Origin: Lentimicrobiaceae bacterium
GTDB taxonomy: Bacteria > Bacteroidota > Bacteroidia > Bacteroidales > P3
Direction: 5' to 3'
Assembly: GCA_022510485.1 (NCBI GenBank)
Contig: JAFLTI010000002.1
Span: forward strand, 38,287-102,286
Length of the DNA: 64,000 nucleotides
In this document: piece by piece, positions 16,962-64,000 of the stretch
Layout of the letters: each line of letters begins with the position of its first letter
How positions within the stretch are numbered: position 1 is the stretch's first letter
Notes under the pieces: model-generated
Database searches by the model: none
What the model saw: the letters and a program-made list of their open reading frames with translations, nothing else
What the model was told of the DNA's origin: nothing
Made by a program: the position numbers and the translations under genes

Positions 16962-19547
16962 CTAAAACAAACTCAACTGTTCGTTAGGCTCTGCCTCTGT
17001 ATTCGTTGCCGGAAACATCGCAGCCTCCTCCGCTTCCTGTTGTTCAGCCTGTTCGTAATCCGGATCTTCCTGCAAGGGTTCCAGCCATTCCACTTTCTTG
17101 ATTGCATAGTTAGAAAGCCGCTTGCCTTTTGCCTTGAATCCTTTTACGGCGATAAACTCTACCGGGTCCACAATCAGGTCGTCTATTTCCTTTTTGTTCG
17201 CCTTGGAATCAAAGACTACCCGAAGTTGAGGAAATGCGTTGAGGCTTAAACTGATAAAACGGCTGGTTTCTTCTTCTACAAAACTTTGGCGTTTATCGCT
17301 TTCCTCTACCAAAAACCGCTTGATGTACCAATAGCCCGATTTGTTCTCACGATACACTGCCGTAATGACCCTTTGCGGATAGTGCTTGGCTATCTGTATC
17401 ATGTCTTCTTCAAAATGATTGCCCAAATCGAAGCTCATCAGGCGGTAAGCCCCTGTTTCCATAAGCGTGAGGATACGGTCTTCGCCCTTAAACTCGCCCA
17501 AATACTGACCGCGTTCCTCTACATTGAGGCGTTTTACCGTTTCATCGTACCAGATTTTGCGCGCTCCGAGCGTGGAGACCCCTGCATCCTTGAGTTCGAT
17601 ACGTTTTACGGCATTGCGCGAAAGGATATTTCCCATACTGCCGCGACCCTTTACCGCAAGTTCCTTGAAATCGTAGTCGAAAACCAATTTTTTCAGTTTG
17701 GGTTTGAATCGCAGCTGCACTCTCACCACTTCGGCTTCCCCATTCGGATTTGCCGTAAAATAAAGTACCTGCGAACCCTTAGTGCCTTTGGTAAGGTCGT
17801 AATCTTTGTCGCGGGTAATACCGCCCACAGCAAAACGCTTGGCATAGGCTATGCCATCTTTTCCGTCGCTGTAAACCATGTTGTAGATGGTGCGTTCATC
17901 GTTGCGCTTGAACACGCCGGCATAGATTATATCTTCTCCAACAAACACCTTTTCGCCCACCTTTACCACCTTGAAGATACCGTTTCGGCGAAAAACGATA
18001 ATATCGTCTATATCGGAACACTCGCAAACGTATTCGTCTTTTTTCAGACCTGTACCGATAAAGCCCTCCGCACGGTTCACATAGAGTTTTTCGTTGGTGG
18101 CGGCAACCATGTTTGCCTGTATATTTTCAAAATTGCGCAATTCCGTCTTACGCTCGCGGCCTGCTCCGTATTTTTTCTTAATGTTCTGAAAGTAAGCAAT
18201 CGTATAGTCGACGATATGATTCAGGTGGTTCTGCACTTCTTGCATGTTACATTCCACATCTTCAATCTTTTCGTCGGCTTTCTTAATGTCGAACTTAGAA
18301 ATCTTGCGCACAGGCTTTTCCACCAGTTTCATCACATCTTCGTCGCTCACCTTGCGCTTTAACCGCTTTTCAAAGGGTTTGAAGGCGTTGCGGATAGACG
18401 TAAGCTGATCTTCCCACTTGCGGTTGTCTTTTTCTAACAGACGGTAGATACGTTCTTCAAAGAATATCTTTTCGAGCGAGGTGTAGTACCATTCGTCTTT
18501 GAGTTCGGCAAGCCGTATCTCAAGTTCCTTACACAGTAAGTTCTTGGTATTTTCGGTCGATATCCTCAGCATTTCCTTTACTCCCAAGAAATAGGGTTTC
18601 TTTTCGGAAATCACACAGGCATTGGGAGAAACAGACATTTCGCATTGGGTAAAGGCATACAGTGCGTCGATAGTGGTGTCAGGAGAGACACCGGGCTGGA
18701 GGTGAACCAAAATCTCCGCTTTTTCAGCCGTATTGTCTTCTACTTTGCGGATTTTTATCTTACCTCTGTTTCCTGCTTTCAAGATACTCTCTATCAACGA
18801 AGACGTAGTGCAACCGTAGGGTATTTCCTGAATAACGAGCGTTTTTTTGTCTATCTGGCCTATCTTGGCGCGAACCCTTACCTTGCCGCCGCGCAGACCG
18901 TCGTTGTAGTTCGCTACATCCATGCTTCCGCCGGTCGGGAAATCGGGATACAGCTCAAAGTCCTGCCCGCGCAGCACCTTTATCGAAGCGTCGATAATTT
19001 CGTTGAAATTATGCGGCAACACCTTGCACGCCAAACCCACCGCAATACCGTCCGCACCTTGAAAAAGCAAGAGGGGAAACTTAACGGGGAGCGCCACAGG
19101 CTCCTGATTTCTGCCGTCGTAAGAGGGTTTCCATTCGGTGGTTTTGGGATTGAACACCACATCGAGGGCGAATTTCGACAAACGAGCCTCGATATAACGC
19201 GGAGCGGCTGCCGAATCTCCGGTAAGGATATTTCCCCAGTTTCCCTGACAGTCTATGAGCAGGTCTTTCTGCCCCAACTGAACCAAGGCATCGCCGATAG
19301 AAGCATCGCCGTGAGGGTGATATTTCATCGTATTGCCCACTACATTGGCAACCTTGTTGTAACGTCCGTCTTCCAACTCGCGCATGGAATGGAGAATACG
19401 CCGCTGCACCGGTTTAAGACCGTCTGCCAATTCGGGCACGGCACGTTCCAGAATCACATACGAGGCGTAATCCAAATACCAATTCTTAAACAAGCCGGAA
19501 ATGGACATAATCCGCCCGGCATCTCCTTCCTCTCTAATTTCAGACAT
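16962..19547 (-). CDS. parC: DNA topoisomerase IV subunit A
   Basis: This 861-residue protein carries the breakage-reunion domain with GLKPVQRRILHSM, the quinolone-region segment YHPHGDASIGDALV and the catalytic Tyr in APRYIEARLSK. The C-terminal portion lacks the GyrA box QRRGGKG and has weak beta-pinwheel blades, so ParC is preferred over GyrA. The tail is acidic and glutamine-rich (residues about 830-861). parE is not in the window. It lies between the BatA-like gene (3 bp) and prmC (4 bp). Confidence 0.85.
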   Translation of the reverse strand: MSEIREEGDAGRIMSISGLFKNWYLDYASYVILERAVPELADGLKPVQRRILHSMRELEDGRYNKVANVVGNTMKYHPHGDASIGDALVQLGQKDLLIDCQGNWGNILTGDSAAAPRYIEARLSKFALDVVFNPKTTEWKPSYDGRNQEPVALPVKFPLLLFQGADGIAVGLACKVLPHNFNEIIDASIKVLRGQDFELYPDFPTGGSMDVANYNDGLRGGKVRVRAKIGQIDKKTLVIQEIPYGCTTSSLIESILKAGNRGKIKIRKVEDNTAEKAEILVHLQPGVSPDTTIDALYAFTQCEMSVSPNACVISEKKPYFLGVKEMLRISTENTKNLLCKELEIRLAELKDEWYYTSLEKIFFEERIYRLLEKDNRKWEDQLTSIRNAFKPFEKRLKRKVSDEDVMKLVEKPVRKISKFDIKKADEKIEDVECNMQEVQNHLNHIVDYTIAYFQNIKKKYGAGRERKTELRNFENIQANMVAATNEKLYVNRAEGFIGTGLKKDEYVCECSDIDDIIVFRRNGIFKVVKVGEKVFVGEDIIYAGVFKRNDERTIYNMVYSDGKDGIAYAKRFAVGGITRDKDYDLTKGTKGSQVLYFTANPNGEAEVVRVQLRFKPKLKKLVFDYDFKELAVKGRGSMGNILSRNAVKRIELKDAGVSTLGARKIWYDETVKRLNVEERGQYLGEFKGEDRILTLMETGAYRLMSFDLGNHFEEDMIQIAKHYPQRVITAVYRENKSGYWYIKRFLVEESDKRQSFVEEETSRFISLSLNAFPQLRVVFDSKANKKEIDDLIVDPVEFIAVKGFKAKGKRLSNYAIKKVEWLEPLQEDPDYEQAEQQEAEEAAMFPATNTEAEPNEQLSLF

Positions 19548-60205: not shown

Positions 60206-60919
60206 ATGGAAACACTGCTTATCTGCCTATACGTTGCCATAGTTATAATGATTGCTGCCCTTTTTGCCGGATTGATTGACACTACATCTATCTATTGTAA
60301 ATCCAGAAGACAGGTCGCAGCATATCTCGGAATACCGCTTGCGTTATGTTTTCTTGTGTCTCGCCCAATATCGGAAGAGGTTGAATTTGATAAACGTAAA
60401 CAGAGATTTGTCGAAAACTATGCAAGAGAAATAACAGGTGGTACTTCCTACAATAATGGGAATCAACAAGCCTCATCCGAAATGAAGTCCAAAAGGAAGG
60501 AGGTCTTTCCGATAGGTCAGACCGTAAGGACGGATTACTTTTCCTACACGGTAAGAAATTTCTCATTCAGGAAATCTTTCGGGGACGGTCGATATGGTTT
60601 TAGCTCTACCGCCGATGGCATTTATCTTATCGTAAGCATCTCTATAAAGAATCTGAGCGATGCACCGTGCAGGTTTCCCTTTAACGATTTTTACGTTACG
60701 GACAAAAACGGAGGGTGGTACACATTCCAAGACTATAAGACTTCTCTATTCCGCAGCGATGAGGCAGGCATTGATGACTGGGATTTTGACAAATTCAACG
60801 GGACGAGGATGTTTCAACCGAATGTCCCTACAAGAGACTGCATGCTGTTTGAAATTCCTCAAAGAGAGGTATATTACCTGAACTTTAGGGAGAGCTCAAC
60901 AGCTATTATTCTTGAATAA
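60206..60919 (+). CDS. DUF4352-containing membrane protein
   Basis: This protein has 237 residues. Two hydrophobic segments at the N-terminus (residues 3-25 and about 41-55) are followed by a charged linker. A beta-sandwich module follows: IGQTVRTDYFSYTV, then GIYLIVSISIKNLSD (the DUF4352 core strand) and MFEIPQ-like strands. DUF4352 proteins are often extracytoplasmic sensors or immunoglobulin-like modules. It has codon use similar to its neighbours but lies in a zone of decayed mobile genes. The -7 region is unclear. Confidence 0.65.
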   Translation: METLLICLYVAIVIMIAALFAGLIDTTSIYCKSRRQVAAYLGIPLALCFLVSRPISEEVEFDKRKQRFVENYAREITGGTSYNNGNQQASSEMKSKRKEVFPIGQTVRTDYFSYTVRNFSFRKSFGDGRYGFSSTADGIYLIVSISIKNLSDAPCRFPFNDFYVTDKNGGWYTFQDYKTSLFRSDEAGIDDWDFDKFNGTRMFQPNVPTRDCMLFEIPQREVYYLNFRESSTAIILE

Positions 60920-60920
60920 G

Positions 60921-61289
60921 TTAGTTCTTTCTCGGGTCGAACTTAACAGCCTTGTCTATCCAGCTGTCGGACTCTTCCTCGATTTTCAATTTTTCGTGTT
61001 TCTATTCAAATGCCCATTGCGCGAAATTCAACGCCACATGGGGATGAACCCATATCTCCCCTGCCTTGTTTTTGGGTTCGACCAATTCGCTCCCATCAAG
61101 TTTCAGTTCTTTCGACAGAAGCGCATGGAACCTTTCCGTCTTGTGGAGTTCCATGTAGTCTTGTAAATCCTTGTCGCAGGCCATGCACATAGCAGTAACG
61201 TCAAAGTAATCGTCGGACTTCCTCTGTCGGATACCTGCATCTAACAATTTACGCATGGTAAATAATGTTTTCGGTTTTCTAACAGGCAT
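60921..61289 (-). pseudogene. KilA-N domain gene with in-frame TAG
   Basis: The frame from 61289 encodes YFDVTAMCMACDKDL, a KilA-N-like region with HKTERFHALLSKEL and VHPHVALNFAQWAFE, then TAG (61002-61004). The same frame continues with KHEKLKIEEESDSWIDKAV... to TAA at 60921-60923. KilA-N domains come from phage antirepressors, so this is probably a phage gene remnant with an additional internal deletion, because the usual residues after NFAQW are missing. The gene start overlaps the transposase remnant. Confidence 0.7.
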
Positions 61290-62007
61290 AAGTAAGGTTT
61301 TTAAGTCTGATGTAATGGGTATTGCTCAGGAACAGTACAAAACTATTTCGCGGCTCTAAGTTATGGGTATTATACCGAAATGCACCCTCGCACAAATACC
61401 TTTGCAGGTATTGTGCGAGACATGGTGATATATCCCGATGATTCTCCGCTTCAACGTAGCCCAGAAACTTTCGATTCCGTTTGTTGTAACCTCTCCCGAA
61501 ACGTATTGCTTCTGTTTGTGTTCAACATATGAATGATTGTATTTCCTGTTCAGATTTCCATAATTCCACTCATCACTGAAAATCGTACTTCCCGCCTGTA
61601 TCGTCTTGTTTATTTCCTTTCTCAATGTCTTCGCCTTGGTGTCCTCAACGACTTTTACGACAACCATTCTGTCCTGCTGAAGCATATCGAAAACGGGAGT
61701 CTTGTCCTTGAAAGAGCGCCCCTGCGAATTTTCGACCTTTTTATCCCAGTGGCGGTTTGTGTTCTTGCCATCCCAAAAGATTTCGTCTATCTGGACTGTG
61801 CCGTCAAGTTTCGTGTCATTCATGTCCCCGACACACTTGCGCCTACGGTGGAGCATGTTCCATGCAATCTTCTAGTTACGCTTATATCCTTGCTCAACTG
61901 ATCGGATAATATGCCCTTTCGGTGGTGCATCTTCCTTTCGAGATAGCGCAGACATGCATCCTCGTCCTTAAAGACGCCCCCTTCAGGGTATCGAACAACA
62001 TTAACAT
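61279..62007 (-). pseudogene. IS1595-family transposase, decayed by frameshifts
   Basis: The best frame (61356-61856) has the ISXO2-type DDE core: VQIDEIFWDGKN, FKDKTPVFDML, SDEWNYGNLNRKY, VSGEVTTNGIESFWATLKRRIIGIYHH. Upstream, another frame continues with FKDEDACLRYLERKM and GILSDQLSKDISVT, then rejoins by one lost base at AWNMLHRRRKC. The N-terminal zinc ribbon is missing. Downstream a third frame gives EGAFRYNTHNLEPRNSFVLF and ends near 61279. At least two frameshifts and a deletion show that it is dead. Confidence 0.8.
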
Positions 62008-62103: not shown

Positions 62104-62610
62104 TTAAACGAACCACCATATTATTATTGCAATGAAAGCCATTACAATTATAATTGAAACAATACATCCCAATGTAGATCCAATTGTGTTACCCATTCGA
62201 TCTCCTAAATTACGATTAAATGAAACTTTGAAGTCATCACCTTTTTTTGCAACGTTAGAGTACACCTCATGTTTGTTAATATTTATCTCGCCTGGAATAT
62301 TCACAACAGGTGGCGTAGGGATATGAGGTGATGGATAAGACTCAGACGGTGGATCTATTGTAGATTGCGAATTAAAATAACTCATCCATGGCAAACATAT
62401 ATTGCCAATCTTTACAATATCCCCATGGTGCAATGTCTGTCTGTGATTTACTTTGCGACCATTAACGTATGAACCGTTAGTACTTGTATCAACTATTTCA
62501 TATGCACCATTGTCATGACGAATGAGTTGACAATGATACCTTGAGACATAAACGTCATCATCTATAACCTTATCATTATCAGCAGCTCTTCCTACTTTTA
62601 TAACTTTCAT
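62104..62610 (-). CDS. FHA-domain protein with C-terminal membrane helix
   Basis: The ATG at 62610 gives a 168-residue protein. The FHA domain covers residues about 1-80 (VIKVGRAADNDKVIDDDVYVSRYHCQL, then VDTSTNGSYVNGRK), which binds phosphothreonine peptides. A proline/serine-rich linker and a C-terminal membrane helix (VSIIIVMAFIAIIIWW) follow. The topology suggests a cytoplasmic FHA anchored at the inner membrane. No kinase is adjacent within the window. It follows the secreted protein on the same strand with a 60-bp gap holding a hairpin. Confidence 0.8.
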   Translation of the reverse strand: MKVIKVGRAADNDKVIDDDVYVSRYHCQLIRHDNGAYEIVDTSTNGSYVNGRKVNHRQTLHHGDIVKIGNICLPWMSYFNSQSTIDPPSESYPSPHIPTPPVVNIPGEININKHEVYSNVAKKGDDFKVSFNRNLGDRMGNTIGSTLGCIVSIIIVMAFIAIIIWWFV

Positions 62611-62628
62611 ATAACAAATGATTTTATA

Positions 62629-62660
62629 GCCGGTATGAACAAACAATTGTCCATACCGGC
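62629..62660 (-). terminator. Hairpin between the secreted protein and FHA gene
   Basis: On the minus strand, GCCGGTATG and CATACCGGC (9 bp) enclose a 14-nt loop, followed by TATAAAATC without a proper U-run. It may partly terminate transcription or protect the upstream message. Confidence 0.5.
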
Positions 62661-62670
62661 CAAGTATATA

Positions 62671-63822
62671 TTATTCGATTTTAGTACTATTAGGTATGAC
62701 TTCAATCTTATTGATAACATATATGCCTTTTGTTGCATCATATTCCAGATAGATTCGCTTTTGCGTATAATCGCTATACGTCTCACTTTGATATCTTTGG
62801 TTAACAATATACACTAACGAATTCCAATCCGAATTTAAGACTTCAAAATTATCAACAGTCATACTCAATACTGAACCTCTGAGCAAATCCAGATATTGGC
62901 GGACTGATTCTCTTTTTATTTTTTCTGTTCCATCTTTCAATAGAAAAGACACTTCAACATGACTATCTGTTGAAACAAACATATTCTCGATGACTGTTCG
63001 TTGTTCTGCTTCTTGAGAACTTACGTATATAGCGAGCTGTTTAGCCAAGTCTTTGACAACAGTTCGTGCATTATTGCTACGCATTTCTTCCGTATCATCA
63101 ATAGTTAAAGCCACCGTATCTACTACATTTGCCAGCCCAATAGATGTACTTTCTGTTGTATCGGTTACAACTTTCTGTCCCTGTGTCTTATTTTCCCTGT
63201 CTGGTTTAACTACAGGAATCTCGGTAGGCATAGAAACAGAAGAAATCAGTGTAAGCTTTTTTACGCCATAGCCTTTTAATCCGTTACCTTGCACTTTAAC
63301 TCCTTTTATAATCTTTGGCTCAACCTGTACCTCCCACGTAAATGTAGTTGTATAACGAACATCACTCTTTTTGTCTTTTGTTACTGTATGCGTTTTAAAG
63401 GATACCGGGACCATAAGGGTTGTTGAATCTATCTGACCTTGTTTTTTCCCCGCTTCAACAGTTTTATAAGAAATCCCATCTATGAAGATTCCCTCATAAT
63501 CCAGCGCCGTTGGTATATTAGATTTATCGCACAATTTTTCAAAAATATCTTTTAACGAATGTGATTTAGGTTTCAAGACAAAATCGATCGAATCTTCATG
63601 ATATAAAAACTGTTGATTTTCTTTCAGTTTATCAAAATCTTTAACTTTCGATTCATTTCGATCTTTCAAACGGCGCTGCATCTTATCCAATAATTCTTTC
63701 TGGTGCTTTTCAACAGCGACCTTTGCCAAATCAATCGGATTGTCACTACGAATATCTGGCTGAGCAATCACCAACATACTGAGACTAAGCATCAGCATGA
63801 TAATTAACATTTTTCGAAACAT
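62671..63822 (-). CDS. Secreted protein of unknown function
   Basis: This 383-residue protein has a signal peptide (MLIIMLMLSLSMLVIAQ, cleavage near residue 20). Residues 25-75 form a basic helical segment. Residues about 80-205 are a beta-rich domain, ending VKVQGNGLKGYG. Residues about 220-260 are a Thr/Glu-rich linker. The C-terminal part (about 265-380, including NARTVVKDLAKQLA and YLDLLRG) might be an NTF2-like fold. No family was recognised. It lies between SUMF1- and FHA-type genes, so it may act with them outside the inner membrane. Confidence 0.7.
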   Translation of the reverse strand: MFRKMLIIMLMLSLSMLVIAQPDIRSDNPIDLAKVAVEKHQKELLDKMQRRLKDRNESKVKDFDKLKENQQFLYHEDSIDFVLKPKSHSLKDIFEKLCDKSNIPTALDYEGIFIDGISYKTVEAGKKQGQIDSTTLMVPVSFKTHTVTKDKKSDVRYTTTFTWEVQVEPKIIKGVKVQGNGLKGYGVKKLTLISSVSMPTEIPVVKPDRENKTQGQKVVTDTTESTSIGLANVVDTVALTIDDTEEMRSNNARTVVKDLAKQLAIYVSSQEAEQRTVIENMFVSTDSHVEVSFLLKDGTEKIKRESVRQYLDLLRGSVLSMTVDNFEVLNSDWNSLVYIVNQRYQSETYSDYTQKRIYLEYDATKGIYVINKIEVIPNSTKIE

Positions 63823-63851
63823 TTTTGTAAACTTTTAATTTAAAATATTGA

Positions 63852-63998
63852 TTATTGATTTATTACAAGCCTAAATCCGATATACGAACGCGCCTCATTA
63901 TCGCATTCCCGATAAAAAACCGTAACATAGTCTTTATTTTCATCATTAAAACTACCTCCTCTTACCACATGTTTTGGTTCATCTTGGGCAAAATTGGG
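63852..63998 (-). CDS. C-terminal end of a SUMF1/FGE-sulfatase-domain protein (cut by window edge)
   Basis: The minus-strand frame reading into 63998 encodes 48 residues with HVVRGGSFNDE, a Cys/Arg-rich segment and the terminal IGFRLVINQ. VRGGSF and GFRLV are the closing signature of formylglycine-generating-enzyme-like (SUMF1) domains, which in bacteria include many non-sulfatase proteins. The stop is TAA at 63852-63854. It lies 29 bp upstream of the secreted-protein start, so it belongs to the same transcript. Confidence 0.75.
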   Translation of the reverse strand, partial: PNFAQDEPKHVVRGGSFNDENKDYVTVFYRECDNEARSYIGFRLVINQ

Positions 63999-64000
63999 GC

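What the first reader, a model, noticed from the sequence alone, without database searches (positions are those of the whole stretch)
62104..63998. Undescribed FHA, secreted-protein and SUMF1 module
A cytoplasmic FHA-membrane protein, an unknown exported protein and a SUMF1-domain protein are adjacent on one strand with small gaps. FHA implies phosphothreonine signalling and SUMF1 may be a surface or cargo domain, so these genes may form a membrane-spanning signalling or defence unit. The kinase is not in view.
Basis: partly seen in the sequence, partly recalled or inferred. Interest (0 to 1): 0.65.

Follow-up and report, generated by a model that had tools for sequence, protein, structure and literature searches.

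The report
Membrane phosphosignalling operon, Bacteroidales secretion-linked
The three genes are the tail of a ten-gene operon in which a kinase that reaches through the inner membrane probably passes outside signals to phosphate-reading proteins, and in related gut bacteria the same operon surrounds genes resembling a protein-secretion machine so far described only in Gram-positive bacteria.

Summary
An FHA membrane protein, a signal-peptide protein and a SUMF1/FGE protein lie co-directionally with 24-29 bp gaps. Sequence beyond the window corrects the reading: the "SUMF1 protein" is a 602-aa Ser/Thr kinase with one membrane helix and an FGE ectodomain lacking the FGE cysteine motif. Joining two contigs by an exact 55-bp end overlap gives a ten-gene operon: Zn-ribbon-FHA, vWA-TM-FHA, two small proteins, PP2C-TM, FHA-TM, soluble kinase, kinase-TM-FGE, exported NTF2-like protein, FHA-TM.

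It most likely works like the PpkA/PppA/Fha threonine-phosphorylation relay of T6SS; the kinase's closest solved relative is PpkA. Of 21 such kinases with a readable neighbour, 19 are followed by an exported protein (background 22%).

Six of 12 family genomes with this kinase class also carry an EccC/EssC-like FHA-ATPase with WXG100-fold proteins, some fused to toxin-like domains (0 of 178 genomes without the kinase). That is T7SS-like, and I found no report of it in Bacteroidota. The window's genome lacks this module, so its output is unknown. Defence is unsupported. This is a new variant of a known kind.

The parts
62104..62646 (-). FHA-TM protein (FHA_a); likely true start 62610 (168 aa). 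Cytoplasmic FHA with the R / S-R-x-H / N-G residues that bind pThr in known FHA domains, C-terminal TM helix
   Evidence: full-length orthologues next to FHA/STK clusters in L021 (64% id) and L022 (45% id)
62671..63822 (-). Exported protein (EXP), signal peptide, C-terminal domain (res. 244-383) predicted NTF2-like; proposed periplasmic partner of the kinase ectodomain
   Evidence: six homologues; model; C-terminal domain pLDDT ~85, N-terminal half unreliable; NTF2-fold matches
63852..64000 (-). C-terminal end of the PpkA-like Ser/Thr kinase - TM - FGE/SUMF1 protein (602 aa; gene continues to window-equivalent 65660, = G000:C12:103946)
61356..61856 (-). IS1595-family transposase, partial (flank, not part of the operon)
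   Evidence: NF033547, profile positions 43-199 of 215

Best explanation
The finding is the 3' end of a ten-gene, horizontally acquired operon encoding a membrane-spanning threonine-phosphorylation relay that works like the PpkA/PppA/Fha pathway of type VI secretion. Proposed working: the exported NTF2-like protein and the FGE ectodomain form the periplasmic sensing side of the transmembrane kinase. When engaged, the kinase (with the second, soluble kinase) phosphorylates threonines on partner membrane proteins. The FHA heads of FHA-TM, vWA-TM-FHA, Zn-ribbon-FHA and FHA_a then bind these, assembling a complex at the inner membrane, and the membrane-anchored PP2C resets it. In relatives with a T7SS-like module, the phosphorylated complex would recruit a soluble FHA-FtsK ATPase that handles WXG100-type substrates. 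In this genome that module is absent and the output is not identified. Shown: gene order, domains, conserved catalytic motifs, synteny, kinase/exported-partner pairing, co-occurrence with the ATPase. Inferred: topology, sensing, phosphorylation targets, assembly, recruitment.
For: Operon: ten co-directional genes with gaps of at most ~65 bp or overlaps, assembled across an exact 55-bp contig-end overlap. Intact motifs: kinase HRDIKPDN/DFG and HLDIKSNN/DLG; PP2C DGMGGH, GDSR, SDGL, DNIT; FHA GR, SRxH, NG. Kinase closest solved structure is PpkA, E=1.8e-42. TM helices in kinase, PP2C, FHA-TM, vWA-FHA homologue, FHA_a. Same gene order in G180/L014 (kinase-FGE 60%, STK 74%, PP2C 54%) and L021 (67%, 77%, 77%). 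Of 21 PpkA-like TM kinases with a readable downstream neighbour, 19 precede an exported protein, against 68/312 background ORFs. FGE-kinase + EXP pair in 6 of 7 FGE-kinase loci examined. FHA-FtsK in 6 of 12 family genomes with this kinase at E<=1e-150 and in 0 of 178 others. Precedent: periplasmic RtkS binds the PpkA ectodomain and drives Fha phosphorylation (PMC6082577).
Against: No biochemical data. G000 has no FHA-FtsK, no detectable WXG100 and no detectable T6SS sheath, so the relay's output there is unknown and it could be a non-functional remnant. The N-terminal half of EXP has no reliable model. The cytoplasmic/periplasmic sides are inferred from one hydropathy-predicted TM and domain types, not measured.
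Confidence: 0.6

Rival explanations
1. Phosphorylation-based toxin-antitoxin / anti-phage unit of the KKP or Stk2 type: two kinases are toxic when the PP2C phosphatase is inhibited by phage.
For: Two kinases and one PP2C in the operon; KKP is a phosphatase gene followed by two kinase genes with anti-phage function (PMC11341870); the locus is AT-rich and patchily distributed; PADLOC kinase profiles match.
Against: PADLOC hits are generic kinase-domain matches (PD-T4-6, mad6). PP2C is separated from the kinases by an FHA-TM gene and neither kinase carries the CSD or FHA fusion used to define KKP. KKP has no counterpart to the vWA-TM-FHA, exported partner and extra FHA membrane proteins. Relatives embed a secretion-like module, not defence genes.
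Confidence: 0.15
2. Remnant of a T7SS-like locus: the secretion module was lost and the regulatory shell is decaying.
For: Matching flanking order in T7-plus loci such as L141/L142, with the module located between STK and STK-FGE; IS1595 and KilA-N-like fragments next to the operon.
Against: All ten genes are intact, and the kinase, PP2C and FHA motifs are conserved. The module-less form recurs as a supported clade of three separate species (window, L014, L021; UFBoot 97) with 54-77% identity for kinases and PP2C, which implies long selection. The tree does not resolve loss versus gain.
Confidence: 0.15
3. The FGE ectodomain is a diversified ligand-binding (C-type-lectin-like) domain of the TvpA kind, and the locus is a surface-recognition system.
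For: Closest solved structure to the FGE domain is Treponema denticola variable protein 1, E=3.7e-23.
Against: No reverse transcriptase among the operon proteins scanned. The domain is on a transmembrane kinase with the FGE part predicted periplasmic, not on an outer-surface lipoprotein.
Confidence: 0.05
4. Ordinary sulfatase-maturation gene beside unrelated genes.
For: Pfam name FGE-sulfatase; the genome has other FGE-family genes.
Against: The region aligned to the 'GGSFLCHesYC' cysteine motif of bacterial FGE reads 'GGSFNDENKDY', and the domain is fused to a TM kinase with conserved neighbours.
Confidence: 0.01

Closest known systems
PpkA/PppA/Fha threonine-phosphorylation pathway of T6SS (with periplasmic activators TagR or RtkS)
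   Same: TM kinase whose kinase domain is closest to PpkA, PP2C phosphatase, FHA protein(s), and an exported protein encoded beside the kinase, as RtkS is encoded beside fha/pppA and binds the PpkA ectodomain (PMC6082577)
   Different: No T6SS genes in the operon and no sheath gene found in the genome; FGE ectodomain; second soluble kinase; vWA-TM-FHA and several FHA-TM proteins; EXP was not compared directly with RtkS or TagR
T7SSc-T7SSj subtypes of Bacillota/Actinomycetota (Garrett, Higginson & Palmer 2024, PMC11217815)
   Same: Several subtypes encode a TM kinase, PPM phosphatase, FHA or vWA proteins with an FtsK-like ATPase and WXG100 proteins (compare the T7-plus relatives L141-L147 of this operon)
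   Different: Those systems are reported only in Gram-positive phyla with membrane-bound ATPases; the Bacteroidales ATPase has no TM segment by hydropathy; the window's genome has no such ATPase and no detectable WXG100
KKP kinase-kinase-phosphatase module (PMC11341870)
   Same: Two Ser/Thr kinases plus PP2C
   Different: No CSD/FHA fusion on the kinases, different gene order, extra membrane and exported partners
TerY-P (vWA-PP2C-kinase) triad
   Same: vWA, PP2C and kinase in one operon (recalled from the literature, not tested)
   Different: Here the vWA protein has a signal peptide, a TM and an FHA domain

Membership tests
PpkA/PppA/Fha threonine-phosphorylation pathway | PpkA-like Ser/Thr kinase with one TM and an extracytoplasmic domain | tested here: met
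   (side of the membrane inferred)
PpkA/PppA/Fha threonine-phosphorylation pathway | PP2C phosphatase encoded with the kinase | tested here: met
   Stp1/IreP family NF033484, 249.7 bits, above cut-off 230
PpkA/PppA/Fha threonine-phosphorylation pathway | FHA protein with intact pThr-binding residues | tested here: met
PpkA/PppA/Fha threonine-phosphorylation pathway | Encoded within a T6SS cluster | tested here: not met
   No T6SS gene in the operon; no VipB/TssC in the genome (a divergent Bacteroidetes T6SS could be missed)
Type VII secretion system (window genome) | EccC/EssC ATPase | tested here: not met
   Only FHA-domain matches, all in this locus
Type VII secretion system (window genome) | WXG100 protein | tested here: not met
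   Neither the A5 profile nor PF06013 finds one; the Bacteroidales WXG-type proteins themselves score below the PF06013 cut-off, so the Pfam test alone is weak
Type VII secretion system (T7-plus relatives) | ATPase related to EccC/EssC rather than DNA FtsK | tested here: met
   Best PDB hits EccC5, 4nh0 and YukB above FtsK; best NCBIfam hits EccCa, EssC, EccCb, all below equivalog cut-offs
Type VII secretion system (T7-plus relatives) | ATPase membrane-bound | tested here: not met
   No TM segment by hydropathy in the two tested
Type VII secretion system (T7-plus relatives) | WXG100-fold protein beside the ATPase | tested here: met
   AF2 hairpin pLDDT 86.7 with the conserved W in the turn; Foldseek ranks 1-46 are nearly all Esx/WXG100 structures, best E=3.3e-3; Pfam/NCBIfam only E ~1e-3 and below cut-off
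Type VII secretion system (T7-plus relatives) | Secretion of WXG100 proteins | not testable with these tools
   needs experiment
Type VII secretion system (T7-plus relatives) | YukD/EsaB ubiquitin-like protein | not tested
   no specific search made
KKP kinase-kinase-phosphatase | PP2C gene followed directly by two kinase genes, with CSD/FHA-fused kinase | tested here: not met
   PP2C - FHA-TM - STK - STK-TM-FGE; no CSD or FHA on either kinase
Formylglycine-generating enzyme | C-terminal cysteine motif of the active site | tested here: not met
   GGSFNDENKDY in place of GGSFLCHesYC

The most novel reading that the evidence does not exclude
The operon is the control shell of a type VII-like protein secretion system in Gram-negative Bacteroidales: a soluble FHA-FtsK ATPase is recruited to a phosphorylated inner-membrane complex to export WXG-domain toxin-like proteins, and this genome carries a form of the shell without, or freed from, the secretion module.
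Probability: 0.45. Interest if true: 0.85.

Novelty: new variant of a known kind. Interest (0 to 1): 0.62.

Why it matters
A kinase-phosphatase-FHA relay with a paired exported partner is a recurring control design for secretion machines. Finding it in Bacteroidales, in half the examined genomes wrapped around or accompanied by an EccC-like ATPase and WXG100-fold proteins with toxin-like domains, suggests that type VII-like systems extend to a diderm phylum where the 2024 survey of T7SS subtypes lists none. It also gives a testable rule: each transmembrane kinase is followed by its own exported partner. The window's module-less form offers a natural comparison for separating the relay from secretion.

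Tried and rejected
Single-sequence search for EXP across 190 family genomes found only G000 and three others. A profile search across 393 genomes of the order added only two weak hits near the signal-peptide end, ignored. The Pfam, NCBIfam and PADLOC scans gave no family for EXP; LmuC at E=0.002 over 49 residues was discounted. The EXP profile matched no solved structure convincingly. The STK+PP2C tree does not resolve gain versus loss of the secretion module. Literature searches for T7SS/WXG100 with Bacteroidota, Bacteroidales or related phyla found no description; the library lacks most subscription journals and all preprints, so absence is not proof. I recalled that TagR may carry a SUMF1-type domain but found no paper in the library to confirm it, so it is not used as evidence.

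Full report
Observation. The window lies in contig C12 of a 1.96 Mb, 66-contig genome, so I took the contig to its end. The third protein is a 602-aa Ser/Thr kinase with one TM helix (residues ~338-356) and a C-terminal FGE/SUMF1 domain. In the cysteine-motif region of bacterial FGE the alignment reads GGSFNDENKDY against GGSFLCHesYC, so it is unlikely to be a formylglycine-generating enzyme; a binding or sensing role is the better guess.

The whole operon. Beyond the window, on the same strand, follow a soluble kinase (282 aa), an FHA-TM-coiled-coil protein (331 aa), a PP2C phosphatase with TM (413 aa; Stp1/IreP model above its cut-off), a Zn-ribbon-like TM protein (164 aa), a four-helix membrane protein (124 aa) and the FHA end of a truncated gene. 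A homologue from genome G180 located the rest of that gene on contig C34. The ends of C34 and C12 share an exact 55-bp overlap, which restores a 528-residue frame (the true start is probably a little further in): signal peptide, vWA, TM, FHA, preceded by a Zn-ribbon-FHA protein (213 aa). All ten genes are co-directional with small gaps or overlaps. The join is computational and was not checked against reads. Catalytic and phosphothreonine-binding motifs are intact in both kinases, PP2C and the FHA domains checked. GC is 28-43% across the island against about 48% for the rest of the window, with an IS1595 and a KilA-N-like fragment on one side and ssb/topB-like genes on the other (recognised by eye): probably an acquired island.

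Conservation. It is found together in G180 (L014), G182 (L016) and the roe-deer cecum MAG RGIG4115 (L021). L014 and L021 keep the operon in the same order (small proteins differ), with kinase-FGE 60-67%, STK 74-77% and PP2C 54-77% identical over the aligned parts. The FGE-kinase and EXP are adjacent in six loci; in a seventh, more divergent FGE-kinase (L155) the next gene is a different exported protein.

A pairing rule. In the loci gathered, 22 PpkA-like TM kinases were found; 21 have a readable downstream gene and 19 of these are followed by a protein with a signal-peptide-like start, against 68 of 312 ORFs overall. One of the two exceptions (L147) is probably a start-site artefact, since an exported BACON-like gene overlaps there. 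Loci are related, so this is not a strict probability. FGE-kinases go mostly with EXP; the other ectodomain type often goes with a BACON-like protein. EXP's C-terminal domain models as NTF2-like, but its N-terminal half is unreliable.

Link to a T7SS-like module. Two named ruminant MAG loci (L022, L023) put the same kind of cluster beside a ~1100-aa FHA-FtsK protein and small helical proteins. A family-wide search found full-length FHA-FtsK in six of 190 genomes. All six belong to the 12 genomes with this kinase class at E<=1e-150; none of the other 178 has it. In five of the six the ATPase lies directly after the STK gene of such a cluster; in G060 it stands apart. In G110 (L141/L142) the order is ZnFHA, vWA-FHA, FHA, PP2C, FHA-TM, STK, [FHA-FtsK, WXG100a, LXG-like, WXG100c, two WXG100b], FHA-Zn, FHA, STK-FGE, EXP. 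The bracketed module sits between the two kinase genes that overlap directly in the window. The ATPase resembles T7SS ATPases (EccC5, YukB) more than DNA FtsK, but has no TM segment. WXG100a models as a helical hairpin with the invariant tryptophan in the turn and matches Esx structures. One WXG100b paralogue carries a Pfam papain-fold toxin domain (PF15644, E=8.3e-18) followed by a small gene that could be its immunity gene; a protein in a divergent cluster (L152) has a lipase-like domain just below the cut-off. Secretion itself is untested.

What the window genome has. No FHA-FtsK, no WXG100 by two profiles (weak tests) and no T6SS sheath. The window, L014 and L021 form a supported clade (UFBoot 97), but loss or gain of the module is not resolved. 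Across a phylum sample of 395 genomes only one, divergent, ATPase was found, so the module is rare outside this family.

Mechanism and comparison. The kinase domain is closest to PpkA among solved structures. In T6SS, PpkA phosphorylates partners read by Fha, PppA reverses it, and periplasmic RtkS binds the PpkA ectodomain and is needed for proper Fha phosphorylation (PMC6082577); in Acidovorax the outer-membrane protein TssW acts through PpkA and Fha (PMC12607579). I therefore propose the same logic here: EXP plus the FGE domain as the sensing side, the two kinases as writers, the FHA proteins as readers, PP2C as eraser. It works like the PpkA pathway but is not filed as a member, because there is no T6SS. 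T7SS subtypes with kinases, phosphatases, FHA and vWA proteins are described only for Bacillota and Actinomycetota (PMC11217815); I found no Bacteroidota report in the held library. Defence of the KKP type is possible but lacks its defining features (PMC11341870).

Noticed in passing
L141:17847-19205 and 19211-19450: WXG100-type N-terminus fused to a papain-fold toxin domain (PF15644), followed by a 79-aa gene that looks like an immunity partner.
   Followed up: partly
L145:14198-15076; L152:5031-5951: WXG-type proteins whose C-termini contain an H-D-x-C-Y motif with nearby cysteines, resembling phospholipase A2; seen by eye, no Pfam hit for the first, the second not scanned.
   Followed up: no
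L152, L157, L159: Second, divergent subtype with an FHA-less FtsK/EccC-like ATPase (889-985 aa) and WXG-type small proteins in other Bacteroidales, one outside this family.
   Followed up: partly
L015:9728-13136; L016:6085-9320: A caspase-domain (Peptidase_C14) exported protein lies near EXP in two genomes of another genus.
   Followed up: no
L016:4994-5599: FHA domain fused to a CD225 (interferon-induced transmembrane-like) domain.
   Followed up: no
L022:6554-8833; L143:15108-17933: FHA-TM proteins with subtilase-like (S8) domains in the same clusters.
   Followed up: no
61002-61289 and 61356-61856: KilA-N-like fragment (by eye) and partial IS1595 transposase at the island's 3' border.
   Followed up: partly
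G000:C34 end / G000:C12 end (L167, L009): Exact 55-bp end overlap shows that the two contigs are probably adjacent in the genome.
   Followed up: yes
60206-60919: Membrane-anchored DUF4352 protein beside the island.
   Followed up: no
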